Below are positions 2,329 through 35,090 of a DNA stretch of 36,421 bases, piece after piece. Under the pieces are notes generated by a model. It searched no databases. It worked only from the letters and a program-made list of their open reading frames with translations, and was not told the origin of the DNA. The DNA comes from Acidobacteriota bacterium (GTDB lineage: Bacteria > Acidobacteriota > Terriglobia > Terriglobales > Acidobacteriaceae), in assembly GCA_021804965.1 (NCBI GenBank), contig JAJZGG010000022.1, positions 1-36,421 on the forward strand, written 5' to 3'. The position numbers were made by a program, and so were the translations under genes. Position 1 is the stretch's first letter. Every line of letters starts with the position of its first letter.

Positions 2329-2530
2329 GCTGTCCGATCCTCCTTTCTGTCTTGTGCCCCTGCCGCCATGCGCTGCAGCCATCTGTGGACGGCTGTTTTC
2401 TTGCGTACGCGCCAACTGACCCTAGTATGCGCTGAAGGACAGGGATACGTCGATGGAATTTCCACGGGATCGAAGTGCCGGGCGGAATGGGAAGGGCAAA
2501 ATGACGACAAAATCCAACGCGATCAGGCTC

Positions 2531-2536
2531 TATACT
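2531..2536 (+). promoter_or_regulatory. -10 box (TATACT), probably giving a leaderless transcript
   Basis: TATACT lies 9 bases before the ATG at 2546 of the SpoIIE-type phosphatase gene. A start site 6-9 bases after a -10 box would fall at or next to that ATG. The same box and spacing occur before dedA and, with 7 bases, before the FAD oxidoreductase. No good -35 is visible. Confidence 0.5.
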
Positions 2537-2545
2537 GAAGCGCAT

Positions 2546-4762
2546 ATGACGAATCAGCCAAGGAGCTGGCACGGGAGCAGGGGCAGGGATTGTGCCGGTG
2601 GACGACTGTGGGCAATCGGGGCTGTACTGGCCCTGATGACAGGGGTTTGGATGCAGGCTGCCGGGGCGCAGCAGGCACCCGCAAGCTCGTCTCCCAGTCG
2701 GCATGCACCGCCGCCGGTGGTCCGGCTGATGCATGGACGCATCCATGCTCCGGGCGGGGAACTGCCCAAGCCCGGCGAGTCGACCGTCTTTGATGCGACG
2801 GAAATGGGTGCTCCGGTTGTGCTGGATCGCAACTGGAGACTGGGCATCTCTGCCGGCACCGATCCTGCCCAGGTGAACTTCGACGACTCCAAATGGCCGA
2901 TGCGGGATGCCACCGAGGCGCTGGACGAGATTGACGAAAGTGCAGCCGATCAGCCACCCGGAGCACCGCCGCAGGAGACCGGAATTGTCCACGTTCACCG
3001 GCATGGCAGGCCGTTTGCCTGGTTTCGACTGAAGGTGAAACTGCCTCCGCAGCACGAGCCGCTTTCGCTGATGGTGGAGGTTCCGGTCACGCGCAGCTCG
3101 CAGATGGTGGTCTTCAGCGGCGATGTGGGCATGGATTTGTATATCGACGGCAAGCAGGTGCAGCCGATCAGCCTGAGCGGGAAGCGCGCCGATCCCTTTG
3201 AGCAGGTGACGCGGCTGTATCCGGTGGAAATCCCGGCCAATGAATCCGTGATGACCCTGGCCGTGCGTACGCCATTCACCCCGGTGGGACTGGATGCATA
3301 CACCAGCTTTTTTGCGCATCGCAAGTTTGTGCTGGGAGCAGCCAGCGACCTGCCGGCACATGTGGAAGTCTGGCGCGACATGATGCTGATGCAGTGGCTG
3401 CCCACCCTGGTGGACAGCGGACTGAAGGTGCTGCTGGCGGTGTTTCTGCTGGCGCTCTTCTGGACACAGCGGGATCATCGGGAGTATCTGTGGCTGGGCA
3501 TCCATCTGCTGTTTATTGCGCCGCTCGCCTTTGTGAGCTATGCCGGCAGCATGGGCCTGGAATCCCAGAAGGTTGTCTTTGCCTGCACGGTGCAACTGCT
3601 GCTGATTTCCGCCTACTTTTACTTTGAGTTCCTCTACAGCTTTCTTTATCTGAAGCGGCGCTGGTTTGTGACTGCGCTGCGGTTTTCCGCGCCTCTGTTG
3701 CTGAGCTTCGGGCCCCTGCTGATGGGCATCCAGCGGGGTGAAGGCGTTGCACTGGCATGGGTGGGATCGCTGCTCTATGCGCTGGCATGGATCGTGGCCT
3801 GGATGATCTTTGTAGGCTGGCAGCTGACGCGTGCCGCGCTCCGCAAAAACTATGAGGCCGCGCTGCTGCTGCTGCCGCTGCTGCTGAGCGTGGTGGGTGC
3901 CGTGGAGTTGTCCTCCACGCTGGCTGCCTCCAGCCTGAAGGCCGTGCCGGTTGAGTCTCCGTTGACCTTCCAAGCCGGGCCAATTCCCGTCCATGTCTCG
4001 GATGTGGCGGATTTTCTGGGCATCGTGGTGATCCTGATCATCATCTTCGTCCGCTTCCAGAGGATTCATCGGGAGCGGCAGCGCGTCTCCAGCGAGCTGG
4101 CCGCCGCACGCAGCGTGCAGGAGGTGATGATTCCACTGGATGCGCCGCAGACGCCGGGCTTCGATGTGGACACCGTCTATGCGCCGGCCAATGAGGTGGG
4201 CGGCGATTTCTACCATATTCATCCGACCAGCGAAGGCGGATTGCTGGTGGTGATCGGAGACGTGGCCGGGAAGGGATTGCAGGCGGCCATGAATGTCTCC
4301 ATGCTGATGGGTGCGCTGCGGCTGACGCGTGCCACCTCGCCGGGCAAGATTCTGGCGGAGTTGAATCGGGTGGTGGCTGGCGGTGCCAGTTTTACCACCT
4401 GCGAGGCCGCCTACTTTGCTCCGGATGGCGAGCTGACCCTGGCCAGCGCCGGACATCCGGCTCCGTATCTGAACAGTCATGAAGTGGAGATGCCGGGCGG
4501 GCTGCCGCTGGGTGTGGTGCCGGAGACGCAATACGAGGAAGTGCACCTTTACATGCATCCGGGAGACAGACTGCTGCTGATCTCCGACGGCATTCCCGAG
4601 GCACGGCGCGTCACCGGCGAACTCTTCGGCTTTGATCGCATCCGCAACATCAGCACGGAATCCGCATTCTTCATCGCGGATACGGCCCGCAATTTTGGTC
4701 AGGAGGACGACATTACTGTCCTGACCATCCGCAGGCAGGCTGCCGCGACGGAGAATGCCTGA
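2546..4762 (+). CDS. membrane-bound PP2C/SpoIIE-type serine phosphatase with extracytoplasmic sensor region
   Basis: A 738-residue protein from the ATG at 2546, chosen for its TATACT box and a reasonable signal peptide (h-region WAIGAVLALMTGVWM, cleavage after AGA so that the mature chain begins QQAP). An ATG at 2501 has a GGAAGGG ribosome site and is the alternative. About residues 60-280 form an extracytoplasmic beta-rich, jelly-roll-like region. About 290-505 is a bundle of roughly seven membrane helices (7TMR-DISM-like layout). The C-terminal 230 residues are a SpoIIE/RsbU PP2C domain with metal-binding motifs GGDFY (D554), GDVAGKG (D572) and EDDITVL (D721-D722). Family knowledge: such enzymes dephosphorylate anti-sigma-factor antagonists (STAS proteins) in partner-switching cascades. 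No STAS or RsbW gene is nearby, so the target is unknown. Confidence 0.9.
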   Translation: MTNQPRSWHGSRGRDCAGGRLWAIGAVLALMTGVWMQAAGAQQAPASSSPSRHAPPPVVRLMHGRIHAPGGELPKPGESTVFDATEMGAPVVLDRNWRLGISAGTDPAQVNFDDSKWPMRDATEALDEIDESAADQPPGAPPQETGIVHVHRHGRPFAWFRLKVKLPPQHEPLSLMVEVPVTRSSQMVVFSGDVGMDLYIDGKQVQPISLSGKRADPFEQVTRLYPVEIPANESVMTLAVRTPFTPVGLDAYTSFFAHRKFVLGAASDLPAHVEVWRDMMLMQWLPTLVDSGLKVLLAVFLLALFWTQRDHREYLWLGIHLLFIAPLAFVSYAGSMGLESQKVVFACTVQLLLISAYFYFEFLYSFLYLKRRWFVTALRFSAPLLLSFGPLLMGIQRGEGVALAWVGSLLYALAWIVAWMIFVGWQLTRAALRKNYEAALLLLPLLLSVVGAVELSSTLAASSLKAVPVESPLTFQAGPIPVHVSDVADFLGIVVILIIIFVRFQRIHRERQRVSSELAAARSVQEVMIPLDAPQTPGFDVDTVYAPANEVGGDFYHIHPTSEGGLLVVIGDVAGKGLQAAMNVSMLMGALRLTRATSPGKILAELNRVVAGGASFTTCEAAYFAPDGELTLASAGHPAPYLNSHEVEMPGGLPLGVVPETQYEEVHLYMHPGDRLLLISDGIPEARRVTGELFGFDRIRNISTESAFFIADTARNFGQEDDITVLTIRRQAAATENA

Positions 4763-21013: not shown

Positions 21014-21136
21014 GAAGCAGGCGGCAATCGTCGGTTCTGGCAAGCACAGGACCGGCGCAACGAGTGCCAGACCGAGACAAGGGAATACCATTCATCCCGA
21101 CGCAGCCTTGTGCCGCGTTGCATACGAGGGGACCGC

Positions 21137-24082
21137 GTGTACGCTAAGCTGAGATTTTTCCTGATAGGGTTTCTGATTGCCGTGGGATGCTGCGGTGCGC
21201 TGCAGGCGCAAAGCGGCACAAGCCAAGCCGGAGGCGCCACCGTCCATGGCCAGGTCGCCGATCCCACCGGGGCCTTGATCCCGGGAGCGGTGGTCACGGT
21301 GAACAATGCCAGCGGCAAGGCTGTGGCCACGGCCACGGCAGACGCCAGCGGTGACTTCGCCATCCACAATGTGGCTCCTGGCAGCTATGTGGTCATGGTG
21401 ACAGCACCGGGCTTTGCGCCCTTTGTCTCGCCTGCTCTCACGCTGGAGCCCGGCCAATCCAAAAAGCTCGATGTGGCCTTGGCCATCCAGCAGGCGGAGC
21501 AGAGTGTGGTGGTCAGCGACGATACGCCGACCATCAGCACGGAGGCCTCCAACAATGCCAACAGCGTCATCATCACGGGCAAGGATATCGATGCGCTCTC
21601 CGATGATCCGACCGAGCTGCAGAATGAGCTTTCGGCGCTTGCCGGTCCGTCTGCCGGTCCCAATGGCGGGCAGATTTACATCGATGGATTCGCCGGCGGG
21701 CAGCTCCCGCCCAAATCCTCCATCCGCGAGATTCGCGTCAACCAGAACCCGTTTTCCGCAGAGTATGATCGTCTGGGCTATGGACGCATCGAGATCCTGA
21801 CCAAGCCTGGTACCGACCAGCTGCACGGGCAGTTCTTCATCCAGGGCAACCCCAGCCAGTTCAACACGGCCAACCCGCTGATCAGGACTGGAATCCCCTC
21901 CTATTACAGCTATCAGTACAACGGCACGGTGAGCGGATCCATCAAGAAGAACACCTCCTTCTTTGTCTCCGCGGAGCATCGGAACATCAACAACCTGAGC
22001 GCGTATGATGCGCCCTGCTCGGCCACCGGTGATTGCTCGGTCGGCGTCAGCGGCACGATCAACAACCCGCACGTCCGCACGAATCTCACGGCGCGGCTGG
22101 ATCGACAGTTTGGCGAAAAGAATACGCTGACGGCGCGCTATCAGTACTACCACAACAACATTCAGGGAAGCCTGGGCGCAACCCAGTTGCCCACGCTGGC
22201 CACTGCCACCGCATCCAACTTCAACCAGATTCAGCTCGGCGACACGGAGATCATCAACGATCATTTCGTCAACGAGACGCGCTTTGAATACAATCGGTCG
22301 ATTTCGACGGGGACACCTGTCAGCACGGCCCCGGACCTGATTATTCAGCAGGGTGGATTCTCCACCGGCGGCGCATTCAGCCAGTCCAGCCACGATCACT
22401 TCGACCAGATGGAGCTGCAGAATCTCTCCACGCTTTCGCTCGGTGCGCATGCGGTCAAGTTCGGCTTCCGGGCGCGCGACTTCCGGGATGCGAACTTCTC
22501 GAACTCCGGCTTCAACGGAACCTTCATCTTCTCCAAGAACAGTGACTTTACCAATGCTGTGCAGAATCCCGCCACAGCCAACCCCATCCAGCTCACCTAC
22601 TCCACCGGGCAGCAGAATGCTCTGGCCAACGTCTTTGACGCAGCGCTCTGGGTCTCCGATGACTGGCGCGTGAGCAGCCGCCTGACCGTCTCCGGTGGTG
22701 TGCGCTGGGAGGCACAGAACCATGTGGCGGATCATAACGACTGGGCGCCGCGCGTCTCCATGGCCTGGGCACTGGATGGTCGCAACGGCAAGCCGTCGAA
22801 GACAGTTCTTCGTGCCGGCTATGGCATCTTCTATGACCGGTTCACGATCGAAAGCCTGTTGGGCATCAACCGCTCCCTTGAGCAGCAGCAGTACGCCGTG
22901 CTGAATAACAGCGCCGCCACGCAGGCAGCCCTGGCCAACTGCTTTGCCCAGAGCCAGACCACATTCAATCCGACGGCCTGCAACATCGGCCAGCCCACAA
23001 CGCGCACCATCAACCAGGTCACGCCCAACTATCACTCGCCCTATGCCCAGCAGTTCGCAGCCAGCCTGGAGCGGCAGTTGAGCAAGGGCATGACCGGCAC
23101 GGTGACGTACCTGCATACGACTGGCGATCATCAGCTGGTGGAGATCAACGCGAATGCACCGTACTTCCCCACCTACGATCCTGCGCAAGGCAATATCTAT
23201 CGCTACCTGAGCGAGGGATTCTTCAAGGAAGATCAGGTCATCTTCAACGCCCGCGCGCAGATCAATCCGCGCCTCGGCTTCTTCGGCTTCTACACCCTGA
23301 GCATTGCCGATACCGACGGTGCCTCGCAGAACAGCGTAACGACCAACAGCATCTCCCCGGTCTCCAACTCGCTGAACATTCATCAGGACTACGGCCCGGC
23401 AGGCTTTGTCTCGCGCCATACCGTCTTCGTGATTGGCAACTATCTGGGTCCCTGGGGCATCCGCCTGAATCCCTTTCTGCTGGCCCGGTCCGGACATCCC
23501 TTCAACATCACGCTGCCGAACGATCCCTACGGAGATACCTTCCTGAATCATCGTCCCGGACTGGCACAGACCTCGGACTGCACGGTCAACTCCACCCGTT
23601 ACAAGCAGACAGCCTATGGCTGCCTGGATACGGAACCGACGCTATCCCCGGGTGAGGCGCTCATCAAGAACAATGCCGGAAACGGACCCGCGGCTGTCGC
23701 ATTCAACCTGCGTATCAGCAAGGAAATCGCAGTGGGACCGAAGGTCAAGAGCATGGCCCACTTCGGCTATCCCGGTGGCGGTGGACGCCGAGGCGGCGGT
23801 GTAGGCGGCGGCTTTGGCGGCGGCGGCTTTTCCGGTCCGGGTGGCCCGGGAATCTTCGGCGGACCTGGAGTTCCCAGAAAGTACCATCTGAACTTCAGCA
23901 TCCAGGCCTTGAACCTATTCAACAACCATGACTACGGCACGCCGAACGGAACGGTCATTGCACCCGGCAACCTGGGCAGCGCGCCGGATCTCTTCGGCCA
24001 CTCCCAAAGCATGGCGCGAGGACTCTACTCCAACGGATCCGCCGTAAGGCGCATCTATGCCCAGGCGGTCTTCACCTTCTAG
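21137..24082 (+). CDS. TonB-dependent receptor, Oar-like, with carboxypeptidase-regulatory domain
   Basis: A 981-residue outer-membrane transporter. The GTG at 21137 is chosen because GAGGGG lies five bases upstream and a compact signal peptide follows (MYAKLRFFLIGFLIAVGCCGALQA, mature N-terminus Q25). Residues about 30-115 are a CarboxypepD_reg/CNA-B-like beta sandwich (VHGQVADPTGALIPGAVVTV). About 120-235 is the plug, with GGQIYIDGF and SIREIRVNQNPFSAEYDRLGYGRIEILTKPG. The remainder is a barrel with many aromatic strands, ending YAQAVFTF, a terminal-Phe signal for BAM insertion. A Gly-rich insert (about 885-915) precedes the last strands. I see no obvious TonB box. Family knowledge: Acidobacteria carry many such receptors, proposed to import sugars or peptides; the substrate is unknown. 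Confidence 0.95.
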   Translation: MYAKLRFFLIGFLIAVGCCGALQAQSGTSQAGGATVHGQVADPTGALIPGAVVTVNNASGKAVATATADASGDFAIHNVAPGSYVVMVTAPGFAPFVSPALTLEPGQSKKLDVALAIQQAEQSVVVSDDTPTISTEASNNANSVIITGKDIDALSDDPTELQNELSALAGPSAGPNGGQIYIDGFAGGQLPPKSSIREIRVNQNPFSAEYDRLGYGRIEILTKPGTDQLHGQFFIQGNPSQFNTANPLIRTGIPSYYSYQYNGTVSGSIKKNTSFFVSAEHRNINNLSAYDAPCSATGDCSVGVSGTINNPHVRTNLTARLDRQFGEKNTLTARYQYYHNNIQGSLGATQLPTLATATASNFNQIQLGDTEIINDHFVNETRFEYNRSISTGTPVSTAPDLIIQQGGFSTGGAFSQSSHDHFDQMELQNLSTLSLGAHAVKFGFRARDFRDANFSNSGFNGTFIFSKNSDFTNAVQNPATANPIQLTYSTGQQNALANVFDAALWVSDDWRVSSRLTVSGGVRWEAQNHVADHNDWAPRVSMAWALDGRNGKPSKTVLRAGYGIFYDRFTIESLLGINRSLEQQQYAVLNNSAATQAALANCFAQSQTTFNPTACNIGQPTTRTINQVTPNYHSPYAQQFAASLERQLSKGMTGTVTYLHTTGDHQLVEINANAPYFPTYDPAQGNIYRYLSEGFFKEDQVIFNARAQINPRLGFFGFYTLSIADTDGASQNSVTTNSISPVSNSLNIHQDYGPAGFVSRHTVFVIGNYLGPWGIRLNPFLLARSGHPFNITLPNDPYGDTFLNHRPGLAQTSDCTVNSTRYKQTAYGCLDTEPTLSPGEALIKNNAGNGPAAVAFNLRISKEIAVGPKVKSMAHFGYPGGGGRRGGGVGGGFGGGGFSGPGGPGIFGGPGVPRKYHLNFSIQALNLFNNHDYGTPNGTVIAPGNLGSAPDLFGHSQSMARGLYSNGSAVRRIYAQAVFTF

Positions 24083-24207: not shown

Positions 24208-25233
24208 TCAGTCCGCTGCCTTTTTCGGTGCCTGCTTCTGCTTTGCCGCGGATGCAGCCTTGGCCTTGGCAGCGGGCTTGGATTTTTTCGCAGCCGGTTG
24301 ATCCGGATTCAAAAAGCCAAACCAGCGAAGCTCCCGATATTCCACCGGCGATTTCTTCGCCTTCTCGATTGCCAGCGCCGCCACTTCCGAGACGATCCAC
24401 TCGAAGTTCTTTTCACCGACCGAATGCAGATCGGCGTCGGGAGCGGGATTCATGAAGTCAATGGCGTAGGGAATGCCCTTTTCCACGGCAAACTCCACCG
24501 TATTCAGATCATAGCCAAGTGCCCGGCAGAGCTTCAGCGCGTCCTGCTCCACCCGGCGCAACAGTGCCTTGCTGTACACCGGCGGATTCTGCAGATAGCG
24601 CTCGGCATGCGGCAGGCGCGGGTCATAGGGCATGATGTGAACCTTGCGCTGCCCCACGACATAGCAGCGGAAGTACTCCTGAAAATCCACGGCCTTCTGA
24701 TACATCATGCAGAGATCGCGGGACTGGTCATAGGCTTCAAAGAACTGCTGGCGGTTGTGGATGTGATAGACATCCCGCCAGCCGCCCCCATCGATGGGCT
24801 TCATGAATCCATGCTCGCCGACATAATCGAATACGGCGTCCCAATGAAGGGGGTATTCGAGATTGCGCATGGAGCGGTCCGTGGTGCCTTCCGGATGACT
24901 TTTGTGGGGCAGGATCACCGTGGGAGGAACCGCCACACCGATGCGGGCAGCGAGCGAGTAGTTAAAAAATTTGTCGTCTGCAGACCACCAGAATGGGTTG
25001 TTAATGATGGCAGTTCCCTGCAGCGCTGCATGCTTGAGCAGGGCCCGATAGAACGGAATGTCGTGGGAGATGCGATCCACGAGAACGGCATAGCGCGGCG
25101 GTGCATCGAGCCGGACAGCGCCCGTCTCCACAAACTCAGCCGAGATGCCCTCCACATGCAAGGCATTGATGCGCTCGACCAGCGCGCCGGGGAAGCTGTT
25201 TTCCATGCCAAAGAGGACACCGATCTTTTTCAT
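24208..25233 (-). CDS. ATP-grasp superfamily ligase-like protein with Lys/Ala-rich tail
   Basis: A 341-residue protein, well started (GGAGGG upstream of the ATG). The N-terminal part (MKKIGVLFGMENSFPGALVERIN) is a pre-ATP-grasp Rossmann-like domain. The central part shows an ATP-grasp core: the FMKPIDGGGWRDVY glycine loop (about 143-156), nucleotide-binding strand CMMYQKAVDFQEYFRCYVVG and the metal-binding end TVEFAVEKGIPYAIDFMNPAPD (about 245-266). Family knowledge: ATP-grasp enzymes form acyl-phosphates and ligate carboxylates to amines or thiols; the substrates here are unknown, though it resembles RimK and peptide-ligase-like proteins. The last 35 residues are almost all Lys, Ala, Pro and Gln. 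It is the last gene of a leftward set, 101 bases after terC, and shares a terminator with the receptor. Confidence 0.82.
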   Translation of the reverse strand: MKKIGVLFGMENSFPGALVERINALHVEGISAEFVETGAVRLDAPPRYAVLVDRISHDIPFYRALLKHAALQGTAIINNPFWWSADDKFFNYSLAARIGVAVPPTVILPHKSHPEGTTDRSMRNLEYPLHWDAVFDYVGEHGFMKPIDGGGWRDVYHIHNRQQFFEAYDQSRDLCMMYQKAVDFQEYFRCYVVGQRKVHIMPYDPRLPHAERYLQNPPVYSKALLRRVEQDALKLCRALGYDLNTVEFAVEKGIPYAIDFMNPAPDADLHSVGEKNFEWIVSEVAALAIEKAKKSPVEYRELRWFGFLNPDQPAAKKSKPAAKAKAASAAKQKQAPKKAAD

Positions 25234-25334: not shown

Positions 25335-26231
25335 TCAGTGACTGGAGCCATGGGAAGTACCAGAGTGAGAACGGTCCGGAAAGAACGCGGAAGCCGCGAT
25401 GGTGGTCAGCAGAATCGCGCCCAGAATACCCAGCGAGAGCACGATGGGAATCTCCACCCAATGGCGAAGCAGCATTTTGGCTCCCACAAAAACCAGCAGC
25501 ACGGCCAGCCCATGATGCAGAAACCGCACGCGATCCAGCAAGCCGGCAAGCACAAAATAGAGGGAACGGAGTCCCAGAACGGCGGCGATATTTGAGGTGT
25601 AGACGACAAACGGACTGTGCGAGAGCGCCAGGACTGCCGGGATCGAATCCAACGCAAACAGCAGATCCGTCAGTTCCACTGCGAGGATGACCCAGAGGAT
25701 GGAGGGAGCACGCTGCTGCAGTCGACGCAGCCAGTTCGGTGCAATCGCCTCCTCGGCCGGCTTCTGGCGCAGCAGGCGCATGGCCAGCACGATCAGCAGC
25801 ACCCCGAGAAGATCATCCATCCATGCAAGCCGATGCAGCAGTACAATCCCCAGGCTGATGAAAAGCGCTCGCAGAACGATGGCTCCACCCACGCCCCAAA
25901 GCAGGGCCCGGCGCTGGCTGCGCACATCCAGCCCAAAGCTGCGAAACAGCAGGAGAAACACAAACAGGTTGTCGATGCTCAGCGAAGTTTCCACCAGATA
26001 GCCGCCCAGAAACTCCAGCGCCGGCTGGTGCCCCTGGCGTAGATTCAGCCAGAACGCAAAGCCCAATGCGCAGAGTGCGATGGCCAGGCTGGATAGCGCG
26101 GCCAGGCCTGTTGTGCGGCGTGCGGAGGAGGCAATGGGCAGCGCAGCATCCAGCAGGAGCAGCAACAGAACCACTGCATGAAAACCAATCCACCAGGACA
26201 ATGGCGCACCGGCAATGGAGTGGGAAAGCAT
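25335..26231 (-). CDS. terC: TerC/Alx-family integral membrane protein (probable manganese exporter)
   Basis: A 298-residue protein with about eight to nine membrane helices. Both family metal-site motifs are present: ETSLSIDNLFVFLLLFRSF (about 80-98), with conserved Glu and Asp-Asn, and AVELTDLLFALDSIPAVLAL (about 185-204), with Asp pairs. Family knowledge: TerC/Alx proteins (MeeF and MeeY in Bacillus) export Mn(II) and help load metal into secreted enzymes. That fits its place 33 bases downstream of an exported glutaminyl cyclase and the Tat genes. A weak TACCAT box lies 7 bases before the ATG, but operon transcription is the simpler reading. It ends with a His/Ser-rich tail (DRSHSGTSHGSSH). 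Confidence 0.93.
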   Translation of the reverse strand: MLSHSIAGAPLSWWIGFHAVVLLLLLLDAALPIASSARRTTGLAALSSLAIALCALGFAFWLNLRQGHQPALEFLGGYLVETSLSIDNLFVFLLLFRSFGLDVRSQRRALLWGVGGAIVLRALFISLGIVLLHRLAWMDDLLGVLLIVLAMRLLRQKPAEEAIAPNWLRRLQQRAPSILWVILAVELTDLLFALDSIPAVLALSHSPFVVYTSNIAAVLGLRSLYFVLAGLLDRVRFLHHGLAVLLVFVGAKMLLRHWVEIPIVLSLGILGAILLTTIAASAFFPDRSHSGTSHGSSH

Positions 26232-26264: not shown

Positions 26265-27176
26265 CTATGGGCGCTGGTTCAGCAGATGGATCGACTCCAG
26301 CAGCACATCTCCCACAATGGTCAGGCTGTGTGCGCTGATCTTGTCCATCGTGTCCTCGGCGGTGTGATGCCAGCCATCCGGCATGGCCATCGTGTGCGGT
26401 CCGTAGTCGCTGTCGATGATGTCCACGGCCGGCACTCCGCGCTGCAGGAAGGGATCATGGTCGTCCCCTTCTGCGCCCTGCTGCTTGTAAAAATAGCGTG
26501 CGTGGCCTGTAATGCGCGCTGCCTGACCGACCAGATCAGAAAGCCAGAGCGTGGATGTGGTATCGCGCATGATATCGAGATCCTTGTCGCCCAGCATGTC
26601 GGTCAGCAGAAAGGCCTTGATCCGCGAGAGCGTCCCGTCCTGCGCCCACTTTGCAGCCAGATGACGGCTGCCATAGGTATGATCTTCGCCCTGCCAGCTT
26701 TGGAATGCCTCTTCCCCATCGAGGAAGACCAGCCAGACACTGTAGCCGTCGAGTTTGCCGCCAACCATATGTGTCCGCAACTCATTGGCCATCTCAAGCA
26801 GCAGGCCTGTGGTAGAGCCGCCATCATTGGCTCCTACGAAGCCGATATTGCGCAACGGATAATTCGTCTCGTAATGCGTGGCCAGGACGATAATGCCGTT
26901 TTTGCGTCCAGGGAAGCGGGCAATAAAGTTACGCATCGGAACCGGACCGATCACGGTATTGGCCGTGAAGGCATCCTCTTCCAGATTGTCGTGGCGAAGC
27001 TGTGCACGCAGGTACGCTTCTGCCTTCGCATGCCCGGGACCAAGACACCATCGCGGGCCAATGGCGACAAAATCCCGCGCATAGTCATAGGCGCGATCCC
27101 CGGAAAAATGCTCCTGCGCTGCGGCAAGCGATGGAAGAAGGGAGAGCAGCAGAAGGATGGACATCAGTTGCTTCAT
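26265..27176 (-). CDS. secreted glutaminyl-peptide cyclotransferase-like M28 enzyme
   Basis: A 303-residue protein with a signal peptide cleaved after AAA20, leaving its own N-terminus as Gln21. The M28 fold carries D118 (GANDGG), E155/E156 (FLDGEEAF), D193 (LLTDMLG), D238-D239 (GDDHDPFLQRGVP) and W269-H270 (GWHHTAEDT). The combination FLDGEEAF...YGSRHLAAK...DDHxPFLxRGVP...WH matches animal-type glutaminyl cyclases, which convert N-terminal Gln to pyroglutamate, more closely than M28 aminopeptidases. By analogy with human QC, E155 would be the acid-base and D118, E156 and H270 the zinc ligands. The ATG overlaps the tatC stop (ATGA) and has an AAGGAGA site. Aminopeptidase activity is the main alternative. 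Confidence 0.87.
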   Translation of the reverse strand: MKQLMSILLLLSLLPSLAAAQEHFSGDRAYDYARDFVAIGPRWCLGPGHAKAEAYLRAQLRHDNLEEDAFTANTVIGPVPMRNFIARFPGRKNGIIVLATHYETNYPLRNIGFVGANDGGSTTGLLLEMANELRTHMVGGKLDGYSVWLVFLDGEEAFQSWQGEDHTYGSRHLAAKWAQDGTLSRIKAFLLTDMLGDKDLDIMRDTTSTLWLSDLVGQAARITGHARYFYKQQGAEGDDHDPFLQRGVPAVDIIDSDYGPHTMAMPDGWHHTAEDTMDKISAHSLTIVGDVLLESIHLLNQRP

Positions 27177-27982
27177 GCAGACTTCTCCTTTGCATTACGT
27201 CGCGATGGATGCACCCACCACGCCACAGCAATACTGATGAGATAGAGCAGCAGCATCGGAATGGCAAAGGCAAACTGGGTGGGAATATCCGGCGACGGGG
27301 TGATGATCTCCACAATGATAAAGATGATGAGAATCGCGTAGCGGATGTTCTTCCAGAGGAATCTGGGACTTACGATGCCGAAGAGCGCCAGAAAGAAGAT
27401 GACGACGGGCAGCTCAAACGTGGCTCCCATGCCGAGAATCAGCGAGAAGAAAAAGCTGGTGTACTCCTCCACACTGATGATGGGATGAACCCCCAGATTG
27501 TGGCTGAGATCGATGATCAGGAACTTGAGCATTCCCGGAAACACGAAGAAGTAGCCCAAGCCAGCACCGGTAAGAAACAGTCCGACCGCTGAGCCCATGA
27601 ATGGGATCACGAATCGCTTTTCGCGCTGATACAGTCCAGGCGCAATGAACAGCCAGACCTGAAAGAGGATATAGGGCGAGGCCAGAATGGCTGCGCCAAC
27701 CAGCGGAATCTGAATATAGCGCAGGTTGACGAGATCAGCCGGGTGGGTAAAGTTGAGCTGAATGCCGATTCGTGTGAGCGGAGCCTGCATCAGGCTATAG
27801 AGCTGCGGCGCAAAGATGACAGCCACCAGGTAGCCCAGAACCAGTGCAATCGCAGAGTGAATCAGGCGTCGGCGCAGCTCGTCAAGATGCTCAAAGAGCG
27901 ACATCCCGGGCAGCTCTGCCCGTTCGCTGACGGCAGCCTTAGCGCGATCAATGATGTCGGGATTTGGCGTGGAGCTATTCAT
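27173..27982 (-). CDS. tatC: Sec-independent protein translocase TatC
   Basis: A 269-residue polytopic membrane protein, the signal-peptide receptor of the twin-arginine translocase. The conserved N-terminal motif MSLFEHLDELRRRLIHS (about residues 27-43) precedes six hydrophobic helices. PADLVNLRYIQIPLVGAAILASPYILFQVWLFIAPGLYQREKRF is typical of the central region. The end is basic (HPSRRNAKEKSA). It overlaps tatB by 8 bases upstream and the cyclase gene by 4 bases downstream, so all three are probably translated together. No obvious twin-arginine substrate lies in the window. Confidence 0.97.
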   Translation of the reverse strand: MNSSTPNPDIIDRAKAAVSERAELPGMSLFEHLDELRRRLIHSAIALVLGYLVAVIFAPQLYSLMQAPLTRIGIQLNFTHPADLVNLRYIQIPLVGAAILASPYILFQVWLFIAPGLYQREKRFVIPFMGSAVGLFLTGAGLGYFFVFPGMLKFLIIDLSHNLGVHPIISVEEYTSFFFSLILGMGATFELPVVIFFLALFGIVSPRFLWKNIRYAILIIFIIVEIITPSPDIPTQFAFAIPMLLLYLISIAVAWWVHPSRRNAKEKSA

Positions 27983-28580
27983 GATTTTCCAGCGGTTCGG
28001 GGCTGAGCGGTGCCGTAAATTCCGCAGTGGCGACGATCGATTCCTTTGAGGAGTCCGTGCTGGCTGCAGACTGTTCTTCGACTACCGAAGGTGGCACAAG
28101 CCCACGGAAGGCGCGGGGCACAACACTGCCCTGGGCAGGCGGCTGAATGCTGGGAAATGCGGATGCCGTCGGCTCAGGTTCTGCCGTCAATCCCGCAGCA
28201 TCTGCCTCGGCTGGCAGCAGAGCGCCGGACTCGGATACAGGCAGGGATGCACCTGCCTCCGTGGAGACTGCCGGCTGGCCCCCTTGTGCAAAGTCGGGAG
28301 CTGGCGGCGGTGTGTGCGGCGCTTCTGCGGTGGCGGCAGAGAGCTTGCGCTGGCGCTCGACTTCCTCGCTCAGCCGCAGCTCCTCTTCCATCTGGAATTT
28401 GAAGTCGTTGGAGATCTTGCGGAACTCATACATGAGCTTGCCGATCTGACGGCCAATCTCCGGCAGGCGGCGAGGGCCAAAGACCATGAGGGCAAGCAGC
28501 ATGAGCAGCATCGTGTCGGGGATACCGATGCTGGCCGCAGATACGGCAGACGGAATGGCGGTTGGCAGTAACATCAACAT
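27975..28580 (-). CDS. tatB: TatA/TatB-family twin-arginine translocase subunit
   Basis: A 201-residue protein: an N-terminal membrane helix (PDTMLLMLLALMVFG), the family hinge FGPRRLPEIGRQIGKLM, and an amphipathic helix EFRKISNDFKFQMEEELRLSEEVERQRKL. It then has a Pro/Ala/Glu-rich disordered tail of about 120 residues. The length and charged helix favour TatB over TatA, but one protein may do both jobs. The start at 28580 (ATG) has no clear ribosome site; ATGs at 28574 and 28667 are alternatives. It is first of tatB-tatC-cyclase and overlaps tatC by 8 bases. The FAD oxidoreductase ends 217 bases upstream. Confidence 0.9.
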   Translation of the reverse strand: MLMLLPTAIPSAVSAASIGIPDTMLLMLLALMVFGPRRLPEIGRQIGKLMYEFRKISNDFKFQMEEELRLSEEVERQRKLSAATAEAPHTPPPAPDFAQGGQPAVSTEAGASLPVSESGALLPAEADAAGLTAEPEPTASAFPSIQPPAQGSVVPRAFRGLVPPSVVEEQSAASTDSSKESIVATAEFTAPLSPEPLENHE

Positions 28581-28637
28581 TCGGGAAAGCCTGGGACAGG
28601 TGCTCCGTGCGGCGAAACTCTGGTTATCTTCCACTCC

Positions 28638-28667
28638 ATGATACGCGGCAAAGTTGGCTGCCTCCAA
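28638..28667 (-). promoter_or_regulatory. possible tatB promoter with overlapping dyad
   Basis: On the minus strand TTGGAG (28662-28667), an 18-base spacer and TATCAT (28638-28643) lie 57 bases before the tatB ATG. A 6-bp inverted repeat AGTTGG/CCAACT (28652-28657, 28664-28669) overlaps the -35. The -35 match is poor. Nothing else recognisable lies in the 217-base gap 28581-28797. Confidence 0.25.
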
Positions 28668-30881: not shown

Positions 30882-33800
30882 TCAGTTGACGGTGACGGTG
30901 ATGGTCGTGGTGGGTGCAGGGGTGATGGCCGGATTGCCTGTGCCAGTAACTGTGAAGGTATAGGAGCCGGCTGTGACGCCAGTGCTGCCGCCGCCGCCCG
31001 ATCCGCTGCTGCCACCACTCCCTCCGCAGGATGCCACGCCACCCACGAGGCCCACCAGCAGCAGCAGGCACCCCAGAAGAGCTGACCATCCCCGACGGCG
31101 ACGCGGCACACCCAGCAGCGCCAGGATGCCGAATGCCATGCCGCCAACCAGCACGCCTGTACTGCGGCGGCTGGCGGGTGTGGTGGTCGTGGTGCTGATG
31201 GTCACAGTTCCGGTGCTACTGGTCGCCGAACTGGAGAGCACAATGGGAGTGGTGGAAGCCGAACAGGTGGGCAGTACCGTTGCTCCGGTGGGAGACGCGG
31301 TCAAGGCGCAACTCAGGTTGATGTAACCGGCGTAACCACTGGTGCTGGAGACTGTAATCGTGGATGCGCCGCTGGAACCGGTGTTGATGGTTCCCAACGC
31401 GGAAGCGGCCACAGTATAGGTCGCTGTGGACGGAGTAATGGTGATTGAGGGCGTCTGGATGAGGCTGTTGTAGTAGGCATCCCCGCCGTAGCTGACCGTG
31501 AAGGTCTGCGTTCCTGTAGCAAAGGTGAAGCCCGGAATCGTCACCGTAACAGTGCCGCCACTCAGGGTTCCCCCATACGCGTAGGAACCTGCGCTGATCG
31601 TCACTTGTCCGGTAGGCGTGTTCCCTGCCGCGGAGGCTACGGTGACGGTGACTGCAAGTGCAGTGTTGGCAGAGATGCTGGTCTGCGCCGTACTCACGGT
31701 CATCGTGGGATTGGAAAATGCAGCCTGGGCAGTTGCCGTGCGGCTTGCCGCAGCATATGAGGTGTCCCCACTGTATTGAGCCGACAGGGTGGAAGCGCCG
31801 CCGAGGAAGAATCCGGCAGGCGCGCTGAAGGTGTATGTACCGGAGGCAAGCGTTCCGGTCAATCGCATGGAACCTGGCAAGGAACCATCCATCAGGGTAA
31901 GCGTCCCTGTCGGAGTTGCGCCCGAGCCGGTCACGGTGACCTGTACCTGTCCGGATGTCGTGGTGGTCAGCGAGGACGTGAGCACCTTGACCGTCACGGT
32001 CGGGGTAAGCACAGTCGCCGTGATCTGGACGGTTGCAGTGGCACTGTTGTAATTGCTGTCGCCGGAGTAGCTTGCCGTGATCGTATCCGTGCCATTGGTG
32101 AGTGTACCCGTGAATGTTGGCGTGCAGGAGCCACTGACCAGCGTGCAGGGCTGGAAGGTCAGTCCGCCACCGGAAAAGGTGATGGTCCCTGTGGGTGTCG
32201 GGAGCGTACCGGTTCCGCTTCCAGCGACAGCTCCACTAATCCGGAAGGCCTGATTGCCTGTGATGGTCGTCGAGTTGGGAGTCAGTGAAAGCGTGGCCGT
32301 GAACTTCATGACGTTGATGGTGACGGTCTGCGTTTCCAGCGGATAGTTCGCATCTCCGGAGTAGCTGACGGTGAGCGTATCGGCTCCTGCGGGCAGGGTT
32401 CCCGACGCCACCGAAAACGTGTACGCCCCGTTCGTGAGCGGTTGCGCCTGCGCCGTCAGTCCCGGCCCGGAAAGTGCCACCGTACCGGTCGGAGTTGTGC
32501 CCTTTGCGGAGACTGCCACCTGGATCGTCAGCGACTGACCCAGTTGGATGGATGTGGCCGAAGGTGTAAGCGTGAGTGCGGCCGATCCACTCCCAAGCGC
32601 TGACGTCCACGCATTCACCACATTGGCAACGTTCAGTGAGCCAAGACCGGTCGCATTGTCAAATCCTGTGGTTGCGCTGTAGCCATTCAGCACGCCATAG
32701 CCGTCACCACTGGTTTTAATAGTGCAGTCGTGCGAGTTAACGCCACAGGGCATGGCATTGGTGCCGGTATCAATGTCGTTGAAGTAGCAGCTTGTGCTTG
32801 TCGTCAGCCCTTCTGTTCGGCAGGCCGAATAGGTCTGCTTGGCACCCAGCCGGTAAAGCTCCGGATTGGCCAAGCCTTGTGCCGAGCCGGTTTTCTGGTT
32901 GATGAGCGCCATCACACCGGCCATCGCAGGTGACGCTACTGAGGTCCCGCCAACCTCATCGCCTGAATACACTACATTTGAAGACGCAGAGCTGACGCAG
33001 CTGCCGTTGTCGGCGACGCAGATCAGATACGCGCTGCCGAGGAATCCGTTGGAGGCAAAGAAGGAGACATCCGGCAGATCACGTGCACTGTCTGAGGGAA
33101 TGCCCGTGACTCCGCTCTGCCACGCGGGTTTGGCGTAGCCTCCGGAGCAGCTGATGATCGACTGTCCATCACTGGTTGTGCAACTGCTGGCTCCGCCGCT
33201 TCCACCTACAGTGTCGATCAGAAAGGAAAGATCCACCTGGCCGTTGGTATCGTTTTTGATTGTCGTGTAATACTGCGAGACGAAGTTACAGGCAGACTCC
33301 GCATCCGTGGGGCCGGTGGCGTTGACACCTATTTTTTGCAGCTGGCTGGCATAGTTTTGCAGCGCACCCAGAATCAGCGGATTGGTGCAGGTATCATTCC
33401 ACGGAACTTCCGGCATGTAGTTGAGTGCGCTGGCTCCGGTGGTGGAGTTGTTGCTGGTGTTCCAGTAGGGCGAAGCCGTGGTGCCCCAATTCAGATCTGT
33501 GCCACCCACTGCCGTGTTATACGGCGTGGAGGCAAAGCCGCTGACCGTGGTGCCAAAAAGCGCGCCATAGGGCAGGCTGGTTGCCAGTCCCTGATCACAG
33601 CTTGCCGACCCGGAATCTCCGGCGGCCACAAAAACGGAGATCCCCTCCGTGGCTGCCGTCTCCCACTCGCTATTCAAAGCAGCGTTTCCACTTGTCCCCA
33701 ATTCCAGTTCGCAGGCACCATAGCTGACGTTCATGATCGGTGCCGTGCGGTTATCCACAATGTACTGAATGGAGGTAAAGAGCGTATCCGTGGTCTGAGA

Positions 33801-34886
33801 TTGCTGGCCGGAGACGACGAGTACGATCTGCGCGCCTTTGGCGACGGCCCCGGACCACTCCACGTCGAGCGAATTTTCAATCTGGTCGTCAATGGTGCAG
33901 CTGCCCGTGGTTCCCCTGCAGATCCCAGGATCGACTCCATTGGCAACGATTGTCTGGGGCGGAGAGCCGGCAGGCAATCCGAATACACTGCGGAAGGTGG
34001 CCACGTTATAGTTGCTGATGTCGCTGGTTCCGGCAATGGCGATGGTCTGGCCCGTACCGTCGATGTTGTTACTCCACAGCGGCAGCACGTTGTAGATGGT
34101 CGCAAAATCGTAAGGCGCAATATCTTCAATCTGGATGCTGTTGGAACCGGATCCATATCCAAACTGAGGAGCAACCTTCATGTCTGGCTGCGTGGCGGAT
34201 ACAAGCGACGGTGTCTGGTGCATCCAATGTCCGGTATGAGGATCGAAGACTGCCGTTCCGCCCAGGTGATGCGCCGGTCGCGGAAAGAAGTCGTGCAGAG
34301 CCTTGACGCCCACGACCACCGGTGCCAGCGCCGCGGGAAGCGTGGGATTCGTCATGTTGGCGATGTGGGGTACACCGCCCACGGAGAGCCGATGAATGCT
34401 GGCACCAAAGGCGGACTCCACCTCGGACGCAGTCCCGCTGAAGTGCAGCGTCATGTGGTCGCGGCTCATGCCATCCACATGGAGCCCATGCGACCCAAGC
34501 CAGCCGGTAACCACGGCAATATCCGCAGGTGCCGGCCCATAGAGCTGCCCGACGGCATCCGGCGTGAGCCAGTGATGATAGTTCGGAGAGGTCGGATCGT
34601 ACTGGCTGGCGACATAGGCATCAAAGGCTGCCTGCTGCTGCGGTGCGCGGCGCAGAACGAGCACCAGATCGGTCATGGGCATCGCCGGATCAACCGCTCC
34701 GCGATCATTGGCCGCAATGGCAGCCGGCGGAGTGTTTCCCGGGAGCGTGATGCGCTGCGCATCATTCCATTTTGCAGTAATCTGCGGGGTTGCCACAGGC
34801 AGGGTCTGAGCCGACAGGGGAAGCACAGCAGCCAGAGCGAGAAGGCAGAAAGTGGGGAGGCAGCCAGAGGGGATGCGAAATGTCAT
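30882..34886 (-). CDS. secreted S53 serine-carboxyl protease (sedolisin/kumamolisin type) with four Ig-like repeats and unusual C-terminal tail
   Basis: A 1334-residue protein. The signal peptide (FCLLALAAVLPLSA) leaves mature Gln27. A pro-kumamolisin activation domain (about 50-210) precedes the S53 catalytic domain, which has E337 and D341 (ENSLDVEW), oxyanion Asp D424 (FVAAGDSG), the nucleophile S649 (GGTSVASPAMAG) and the calcium-site end ATGFDNATGLGS. Four Ig-like repeats of about 97 residues follow (about 760-1160), each with YSGDxNY or a close variant. A further beta domain is next, then a hydrophobic helix, PRRRRGW, a second hydrophobic helix, VASC1287, a Gly/Ser run and a last beta stretch. 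Family knowledge: S53 enzymes are acid-active endopeptidases, suited to acidic soil. The ATG at 34886 best fits the signal peptide; no good ribosome site is near. Confidence 0.95.
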   Translation of the reverse strand: MTFRIPSGCLPTFCLLALAAVLPLSAQTLPVATPQITAKWNDAQRITLPGNTPPAAIAANDRGAVDPAMPMTDLVLVLRRAPQQQAAFDAYVASQYDPTSPNYHHWLTPDAVGQLYGPAPADIAVVTGWLGSHGLHVDGMSRDHMTLHFSGTASEVESAFGASIHRLSVGGVPHIANMTNPTLPAALAPVVVGVKALHDFFPRPAHHLGGTAVFDPHTGHWMHQTPSLVSATQPDMKVAPQFGYGSGSNSIQIEDIAPYDFATIYNVLPLWSNNIDGTGQTIAIAGTSDISNYNVATFRSVFGLPAGSPPQTIVANGVDPGICRGTTGSCTIDDQIENSLDVEWSGAVAKGAQIVLVVSGQQSQTTDTLFTSIQYIVDNRTAPIMNVSYGACELELGTSGNAALNSEWETAATEGISVFVAAGDSGSASCDQGLATSLPYGALFGTTVSGFASTPYNTAVGGTDLNWGTTASPYWNTSNNSTTGASALNYMPEVPWNDTCTNPLILGALQNYASQLQKIGVNATGPTDAESACNFVSQYYTTIKNDTNGQVDLSFLIDTVGGSGGASSCTTSDGQSIISCSGGYAKPAWQSGVTGIPSDSARDLPDVSFFASNGFLGSAYLICVADNGSCVSSASSNVVYSGDEVGGTSVASPAMAGVMALINQKTGSAQGLANPELYRLGAKQTYSACRTEGLTTSTSCYFNDIDTGTNAMPCGVNSHDCTIKTSGDGYGVLNGYSATTGFDNATGLGSLNVANVVNAWTSALGSGSAALTLTPSATSIQLGQSLTIQVAVSAKGTTPTGTVALSGPGLTAQAQPLTNGAYTFSVASGTLPAGADTLTVSYSGDANYPLETQTVTINVMKFTATLSLTPNSTTITGNQAFRISGAVAGSGTGTLPTPTGTITFSGGGLTFQPCTLVSGSCTPTFTGTLTNGTDTITASYSGDSNYNSATATVQITATVLTPTVTVKVLTSSLTTTTSGQVQVTVTGSGATPTGTLTLMDGSLPGSMRLTGTLASGTYTFSAPAGFFLGGASTLSAQYSGDTSYAAASRTATAQAAFSNPTMTVSTAQTSISANTALAVTVTVASAAGNTPTGQVTISAGSYAYGGTLSGGTVTVTIPGFTFATGTQTFTVSYGGDAYYNSLIQTPSITITPSTATYTVAASALGTINTGSSGASTITVSSTSGYAGYINLSCALTASPTGATVLPTCSASTTPIVLSSSATSSTGTVTISTTTTTPASRRSTGVLVGGMAFGILALLGVPRRRRGWSALLGCLLLLVGLVGGVASCGGSGGSSGSGGGGSTGVTAGSYTFTVTGTGNPAITPAPTTTITVTVN

Positions 34887-35090
34887 GCAGAGCAGCCGAG
34901 CCTTTCTTGGCTTTCCAGCACTCCCGGACACAGTCGAACTTCGCAGCATTCCGGAATGGAACTGGAAAGAATCTGGCAGGATTCTACCCTGAAAATGCCA
35001 GCGCTCGACAGAGATATTTCTGTGCACCCCCCGCAATCGATTTACTCCATCAACAGCTTGGGTGGCGACTGGCTGTTCCTCGGCCGGACT

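What the first reader, a model, noticed from the sequence alone, without database searches (positions are those of the whole stretch)
26265..27176. Animal-type glutaminyl cyclase and an apparent 'Q-rule' for exported proteins outside Bacteroidetes
Seen: the M28 protein carries the glutaminyl cyclase block (FLDGEEAF, YGSRHLAAK, DDHxPFLxRGVP, WH). Seen by eye: predicted signal-peptidase-I sites put Gln at +1 in four exported proteins here: the cyclase (AAA/QEH), SpoIIE-type phosphatase (AGA/QQA), TonB-dependent receptor (LQA/QSG) and S53 protease (LSA/QTL). The CAP, DUF5666-like and M48 proteins do not fit cleanly. Known: in Bacteroidetes most signal-peptidase-I substrates start with Gln and are cyclised to pyroglutamate. 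Inference: this lineage may use the same N-terminal capping of its exported proteome.
Basis: partly seen in the sequence, partly recalled or inferred. Interest (0 to 1): 0.78.

Follow-up and report, generated by a model that had tools for sequence, protein, structure and literature searches.

The report
Pyroglutamate capping enzyme and Q-rule, Acidobacteriaceae
This soil bacterium carries an animal-like enzyme that seals the first amino acid of proteins, sits next to an export gene, and its exported proteins unusually often begin with the amino acid that the enzyme seals, a habit so far credited mainly to another bacterial phylum.

Summary
The gene at 26265-27176 (-) is an animal-type (type II) glutaminyl cyclase. 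Its model matches PDB 7d18, 'Acidobacteriales bacterium glutaminyl cyclase' (60% identity, TM 0.93), and it lies in a QC clade (100/99) apart from aminopeptidases. The enzyme is not new. The +1 Gln excess is real in the sampled part of the genome (229 kb of 2.97 Mb): estimated share 0.40 [0.21-0.51], background 0.042. Seven Acidobacteriaceae sets pooled give 0.54; E. coli 0.08; five same-phylum genomes without a detected QC 0.14; a small Bacteroidota control 0.32. The gene overlaps tatC by 4 bases, and tatC is directly upstream in 74 of 74 readable named loci. All 31 family genomes searched hold a type II or an unrelated type I QC. The two without type II lack it between tatC and TerC, hold type I and keep the excess. 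Against: a Cupriavidus megaplasmid, meant as negative control, scored 0.44, QC status untestable. Pyroglutamate was not observed. Best reading: a Q-rule in Acidobacteriaceae, served by either cyclase; papers seen call it Bacteroidetes-specific, apart from scattered high species elsewhere.

The parts
26265..27176 (-). Type II (animal-type) glutaminyl cyclase, 303 aa
   Evidence: M28 Pfam hit; nearest solved chain 7d18; QC clade 100/99; Asp118-Gly119, Glu155-Glu156, Trp161, Asp193, Asp238-Asp239, His271
27117..27176 (-). Predicted signal peptide of the cyclase, residues 1-20, cut AAA|Q
   Evidence: Site callers blind to +1
27114..27116 (-). Codon of the +1 Gln of the mature cyclase itself
   Evidence: of 80 named loci 68 precursors were readable, Gln at the blind +1 in 33, a compatible [AGS]|Q site in 41
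27173..27982 (-). tatC, its stop overlapping the cyclase start (ATGA)
   Evidence: Pfam TatC 1.8e-61; junction with AAGGAG before the start
27975..28667 (-). tatA/B-type gene (start not settled)
   Evidence: Pfam TatA_B_E 1.1e-10
25335..26231 (-). TerC-family membrane protein downstream of the cyclase
   Evidence: Pfam TerC 2.1e-44; same-strand within 2.5 kb downstream in 45 of the 74 named loci, downstream room not checked
21110..24082 (+). CarboxypepD_reg / OMP TonB-type receptor, leader LQA|QSG
   Evidence: the blind caller cut three residues earlier
2453..4762 (+). SpoIIE-type phosphatase with leader AGA|QQA (site by reading)
   Evidence: not called by the pipeline
30882..35036 (-). Pro-kumamolisin (S53-type) protein, internal start, leader LSA|QTL (site by reading)
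   Evidence: not called by the pipeline

Best explanation
Exported proteins of this Acidobacteriaceae bacterium are cut by signal peptidase I so that roughly half start with Gln. A periplasmic type II glutaminyl cyclase, encoded directly behind tatC and itself exported by a cleavable leader, then cyclises that Gln to pyroglutamate, which blocks aminopeptidases. Shown here: the enzyme family, the gene order, the +1 Gln excess in a sample, and the type I/type II distribution. Inferred: co-transcription, cyclisation in the cell, the protective role, and any link to Tat beyond co-location.
For: QC fold and residues. +1 Gln share 0.40 in the own genome and 0.54 in the family pool of 164 candidates, with the +2 and +3 columns at 0.16 and 0.21. 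Shuffling the 25 residues after the hydrophobic core gave mean 0.12, maximum 0.21 in 60 shuffles, against 0.48 observed on that pool of 142. All ten sampled genomes with a QC scored above all five without (exact Mann-Whitney P 0.0003; the margin is 0.20 against 0.20 after rounding, and six of the ten are one family). 31 of 31 family genomes hold a type II or type I QC. In G179 and G225 the gene is absent between tatC and TerC, type I is present, and the shares are 0.37 and 0.57.
Against: No pyroglutamate or enzyme activity was measured. The Cupriavidus megaplasmid scored 0.44; no record of that genus was among the plasmid records hit by either QC type, but its chromosome is not held. G027, with neither QC found, scored 0.20, like the weakest QC genomes; G217, a family genome with type II, scored only 0.21 [0.01-0.51] on 10 candidates. 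With sites chosen blind to +1, QC-bearing genomes outside the family do not differ significantly from QC-less ones (8 of 46 against 6 of 58, P 0.22). The Bacteroidota control is weak: 0.32 on 13 candidates, 0.11 on a strict subset of 8. No family genome without any QC is not significant alone: about 0.9 expected from the margins (my arithmetic).
Confidence: 0.74

Rival explanations
1. The +1 Gln preference is a property of signal peptidase I or of leader evolution in many Gram-negative lineages; the cyclase acts on a few proteins only.
For: Cupriavidus megaplasmid 0.44 and G027 0.20 without a QC having been found; PMC5837995 reports a continuum of Q-values, 2% to 77%, outside Bacteroidetes and Chlorobi (section 16 read).
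Against: Within the phylum the genomes without a detected QC are lowest (pool 0.14); the two family genomes without type II hold type I; E. coli 0.08 and S. meliloti pSymB 0.04.
Confidence: 0.2
2. The protein is an M28 aminopeptidase and the Gln excess is unrelated.
For: Pfam knows it only as Peptidase_M28, NCBIfam has no match; the residue before the zinc His is His, not Trp.
Against: 100/99 QC clade without any of the seven own paralogues or two aminopeptidases. Paralogue L001 matches aminopeptidases instead. 7d18 shares the His and is titled glutaminyl cyclase.
Confidence: 0.03
3. The cyclase serves mainly Tat substrates, as its place behind tatC suggests, and the Sec proteome only incidentally.
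For: tatC linkage in this family.
Against: No linkage in 20 of 20 QC loci outside the family, searched with the window's TatC. Of 15 Gln rows among the 33 candidates only one shows a twin-arginine pattern (SRRSFL in L066), by reading; Tat leaders were not tested by a program.
Confidence: 0.1

Closest known systems
PDB 7d18, Acidobacteriales bacterium glutaminyl cyclase
   Same: 60% identity, TM 0.93, same key residues including His before the zinc His
   Different: No paper on it was seen: 0 papers hold glutaminyl cyclase with acidobacteri, and none of the 20 listed of 59 holds 7d18.
Bacteroidetes Q-rule and its cyclases (PgQC; PMC5837995, PMC10653852, PMC7948796)
   Same: Many signal peptidase I substrates start with Gln; animal-type or plant-type QC, both types in only 63 Bacteroidetes species against 574 and 507 with the animal and plant type (passage)
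   Different: Other phylum; this QC has a cleavable leader, whereas PgQC is a lipoprotein (passage); Glu156 as in animals, where Bacteroidetes mostly have Asp; both QC types co-occur in 15 of 31 family genomes; gene behind tatC
Animal glutaminyl cyclases (QPCT, QPCTL)
   Same: Fold, Asp/Glu-Glu/Asp/His set, Trp161, DDH block
   Different: Asp118 followed by Gly as in bacteroidal QC instead of Ser; His instead of Trp before the zinc His
Type I (plant/Xanthomonas) glutaminyl cyclase, PF05096
   Same: Same reaction by family name; present where type II is missing in G179 and G225
   Different: Unrelated fold (PMC7948796, passages); not found in the window's assembly, which is 87.5% complete

Membership tests
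Type II glutaminyl cyclase | Groups with QCs apart from M28 aminopeptidases | tested here: met
   100/99 clade of 25 rows: animal, bacteroidal and acidobacterial QCs. The tool warns of long branches; all of those are aminopeptidase or paralogue rows, and the two outgroup rows do not form one side of a branch
Type II glutaminyl cyclase | Zinc and catalytic residues (human D159, E201, E202, D248; H330 recalled) | tested here: met
   Asp118, Glu155, Glu156, Asp193, His271 invariant in 21 sequences
Type II glutaminyl cyclase | Residue after the Asp is Ser or Gly, not Asn/Asp | tested here: met
   Gly119. Asn/Asp in 1cp7, 1amp and paralogues L001, L002, L003, L006, L007; Pro in L005, Met in L008. 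Not strict: QC rows L186 and L191 have Ala, L195 Pro
Type II glutaminyl cyclase | Pocket Trp (human W207, recalled) and DDH block | tested here: met
   Trp161 and Asp238-Asp239-His240; none of the nine non-QC rows has the Trp or the first Asp. Among QC rows L198 has Phe and L297 a gap at the Trp
Type II glutaminyl cyclase | Trp before the zinc His (PgTrp298) | tested here: not met
   His270; also His in 7d18, so not treated as excluding
Type II glutaminyl cyclase | Cyclises N-terminal Gln | not testable with these tools
   Needs the purified enzyme
Q-rule | Gln at +1 in a large share of signal peptidase I substrates | tested here: met
   0.40 own genome (31 candidates), 0.54 family pool (164); the same pipeline gives 0.32 on 13 candidates of a Bacteroidota control
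Q-rule | Exported glutaminyl cyclase of type I or II in the genome | tested here: met
   leader
Q-rule | Mature N-termini are pyroglutamate | not testable with these tools
   Needs mass spectrometry
Q-rule (as published) | Bacteroidetes-specific | tested here: not met
   Statements in passages of PMC5837995 and PMC10653852; excess seen here in another phylum. PMC5837995 itself lists scattered high species elsewhere

The most novel reading that the evidence does not exclude
A second Q-rule lineage at family level: Acidobacteriaceae cap their exported proteome with pyroglutamate, using either of two unrelated cyclases, with the type II gene locked behind tatC. The Cupriavidus result would then mean that the rule is a general, overlooked envelope trait of several phyla.
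Probability: 0.5. Interest if true: 0.68.

Novelty: new member of a known kind. Interest (0 to 1): 0.55.

Why it matters
PMC10653852 (passage) suggests that intense proteolysis in Porphyromonas gingivalis and related species may explain why the Q-rule applies to Bacteroidetes and not to other phyla. Finding it in Acidobacteriaceae would weaken that account and give a natural test: genomes with type II only, type I only, both or neither within one phylum. It is also a plain annotation fix, since Pfam calls the enzyme only a peptidase.

Tried and rejected
Two earlier signal-peptide callers seemed by eye to cut a few residues early; their Gln counts in the own genome were 8 of 26 and 8 of 30. That led to the EM estimate. 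Blind-site counts are still given, because EM favours any enriched residue. Named flanking loci (76 of 80 used, L199, L202, L203 and L261 left out as near copies or fragments) gave only 0.28 on 99 rows and 0.27 on 50 cluster representatives. By reading, the three biggest clusters there are a lipoprotein, an anchored membrane protein and the cyclase itself, so this set is not main evidence. QC loci outside the family gave 0.28 on 55 rows. A Runella plasmid stretch had only 3 candidates. The single-sequence fold was poor (pLDDT 43.5) and was replaced by an alignment-based one (88.9). Cupriavidus and Sinorhizobium were picked as negative controls without knowing their QC content; Cupriavidus failed as one. 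For E. coli only type I was checked, as a tool control. The Bacteroidota share lies below the published mean of 71%, so the pipeline may underestimate. The idea that type II alone predicts the excess was dropped because of G225 and G179.

Full report
What the gene is. The ORF at 26265-27176 on the minus strand codes 303 residues. Pfam gives only Peptidase_M28 (E 4.9e-27) and NCBIfam nothing. Among solved chains phmmer ranks 7d18 first (E 1.8e-114), then fly and human cyclases; the last three of 44 are peptidases of other M28 kinds (8vpl, 2ek8, 6hc6). An AlphaFold model from 21 family sequences (mean pLDDT 88.9) matches 7d18, titled 'Crystal structure of Acidobacteriales bacterium glutaminyl cyclase', at TM 0.93 (target length) and 60% identity. 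Of the 50 rows listed (404 had E <= 0.001), 47 are titled glutaminyl cyclase and three (two chains of 3tc8, and 4fuu) are entries that PMC7948796 (section 6 read) proposes to rename as QC. A tree of 34 rows puts all QCs in one clade (100/99) without any of the seven own M28 paralogues or the two aminopeptidases; within it this protein lies on the side of the animal enzymes (88/93, an open fork) and not with the bacteroidal ones (99/94). Paralogue L001 matches aminopeptidases.

Residues. Asp118, Glu155, Glu156, Trp161, Asp193, Asp238, Asp239 and His271 are invariant in 21 relatives. Trp161 and the first Asp of DDH are missing from all nine non-QC rows compared; among QC rows L198 has Phe and L297 a gap at the Trp. 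Glu156 is animal-like; Bacteroidetes mostly have Asp (PMC5837995, passages). Gly119 is bacteroidal-like (PMC7948796). Human residue numbers W207, W329 and H330 are recalled.

Neighbourhood. A tatA/B-type gene, tatC, the cyclase and TerC run in one direction; tatC and the cyclase share ATGA, with AAGGAG shortly before the start. The two sets overlap. Outside the family it is 0 of 20 loci, two of them of the same class. The named loci are Acidobacteriaceae or its genera, Acidobacteriales, or Acidobacteria/Acidobacteriota without a finer name; L199, MAG ZJ2.bin14, is identical over all 303 residues.

The +1 Gln question. No signal-peptide program is at hand, so I wrote one. It finds genes by codon usage, finds leaders by a positive n-region and a hydrophobic core, drops lipoboxes and multi-pass proteins, and picks a cut from -3 and -1 (with the hydrophobicity around the cut) without looking at +1; an EM step then estimates the +1 shares. 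The -3/-1 weights are recalled, not fitted, and the candidate lists contain false leaders. Own genome, 229 kb of 2.97 Mb: 31 candidates (2 dropped for a lipobox), share 0.40 [0.21-0.51], background 0.042; blind-site count 8 of 31. Others in the family: G217 0.21 (10 candidates), G225 0.57 (24), G179 0.37 (11), G241 0.42 (25), G281 0.51 (33; Terriglobus albidus, by its contig length), Granulicella tundricola megaplasmid 0.69 (30; QC status not tested). Pool 164: 0.54 [0.46-0.60]; +2 column 0.16, +3 column 0.21. Other families with a QC: 46 candidates, 0.31. Same phylum, neither QC found: 58 candidates, 0.14 (G027 0.20, G010 0.01, G029 0.01, G002 0.11, G011 0.06). E. coli 0.08 (26), S. meliloti pSymB 0.04 (15), Prevotella 0.32 (13), Cupriavidus 0.44 (22) (all). 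Blind-site counts: family 47 of 164 against no-QC 6 of 58, P 0.003; other QC families 8 of 46 against 6 of 58, P 0.22. Strict subsets: family 0.57 (68), no-QC 0.13 (26), E. coli 0.01 (8); Prevotella 0.11 (8) and Cupriavidus 0.50 (12). On the earlier pool of 142, a compatible site followed by Gln exists in 74, by Glu in 4, Asp in 10, Asn in 3, Thr in 27, Ser in 29 and Ala in 66.

Two cyclases. Type II is found in 108 of 297 phylum genomes, type I in 96 of 297, both in 44, neither in 137; the two go together slightly more than by chance (Fisher P 0.02), so there is no phylum-wide exclusion. In the family of 31: type II only 14, both 15, type I only 2, neither 0. In the two type I-only genomes, G179 and G225, tatC is followed by TerC with the cyclase missing (L170 and L173), while G241 and G281 of the same genus keep it between them. 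These two keep the Gln excess (pooled 0.53). This resembles Bacteroidetes, where animal-type QCs prevail in Bacteroidia and plant-type in Flavobacteriia (PMC5837995). The cyclase precursor itself mostly fits: 41 of 68 readable precursors have a compatible [AGS]|Q site.

Literature. PMC5837995 (abstract passages, section 16 and other passages) gives Q-values for Bacteroidetes, Chlorobi, Chlamydiae, Spirochaetes and Cyanobacteria; it calls the rule Bacteroidetes-specific but lists high species elsewhere (Ignavibacterium album 77%, three Chlorobi, a few cyanobacteria). Its main text holds no 'acidobacteri'. PMC10653852 (passages) speaks of Bacteroidetes but not other phyla. PMC3827258 (passages), a tatC operon survey with Acidobacteria, holds no 'cyclase'. 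Library searches for glutaminyl cyclase with acidobacteri (0 papers), tatC with glutaminyl cyclase (1 paper, on a copper amine oxidase), Q-rule with signal peptide (10 papers, listing seen) and related terms (listings) showed no report of a Q-rule in Acidobacteriota. The library lacks most subscription papers, and supplements were not read, so this is not proof of absence.

Limits. Samples are small, the leader caller is home-made, the ten QC genomes are not independent, and Cupriavidus shows that the excess also occurs where I could not show a cyclase. Nothing here measures pyroglutamate. The link between excess and capping is an inference from the known reaction of the enzyme family.

Noticed in passing
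L285, L291, L292 (Cupriavidus metallidurans megaplasmid): High estimated +1 Gln share (0.44, 22 candidates) in a betaproteobacterial replicon meant as a negative control; no plasmid record of that genus was hit by either QC type.
   Followed up: partly
L196, L197 (G072, G272, family f42): Some acidobacterial type II cyclases group with the bacteroidal branch and have Glu-Asp instead of Glu-Glu.
   Followed up: partly
L026 (G121, genus g5): The cyclase there is not next to tatC and its leader reads, by eye, as a lipoprotein leader (FSAC).
   Followed up: no
window 26364-26372 (-): Trp269-His270-His271: His stands where animal and many bacterial QCs have Trp before the zinc His, as in 17 of 21 relatives and 7d18.
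   Followed up: partly
window 24208-25233 (-): 341-residue ORF with no Pfam or NCBIfam match at E <= 0.001.
   Followed up: no
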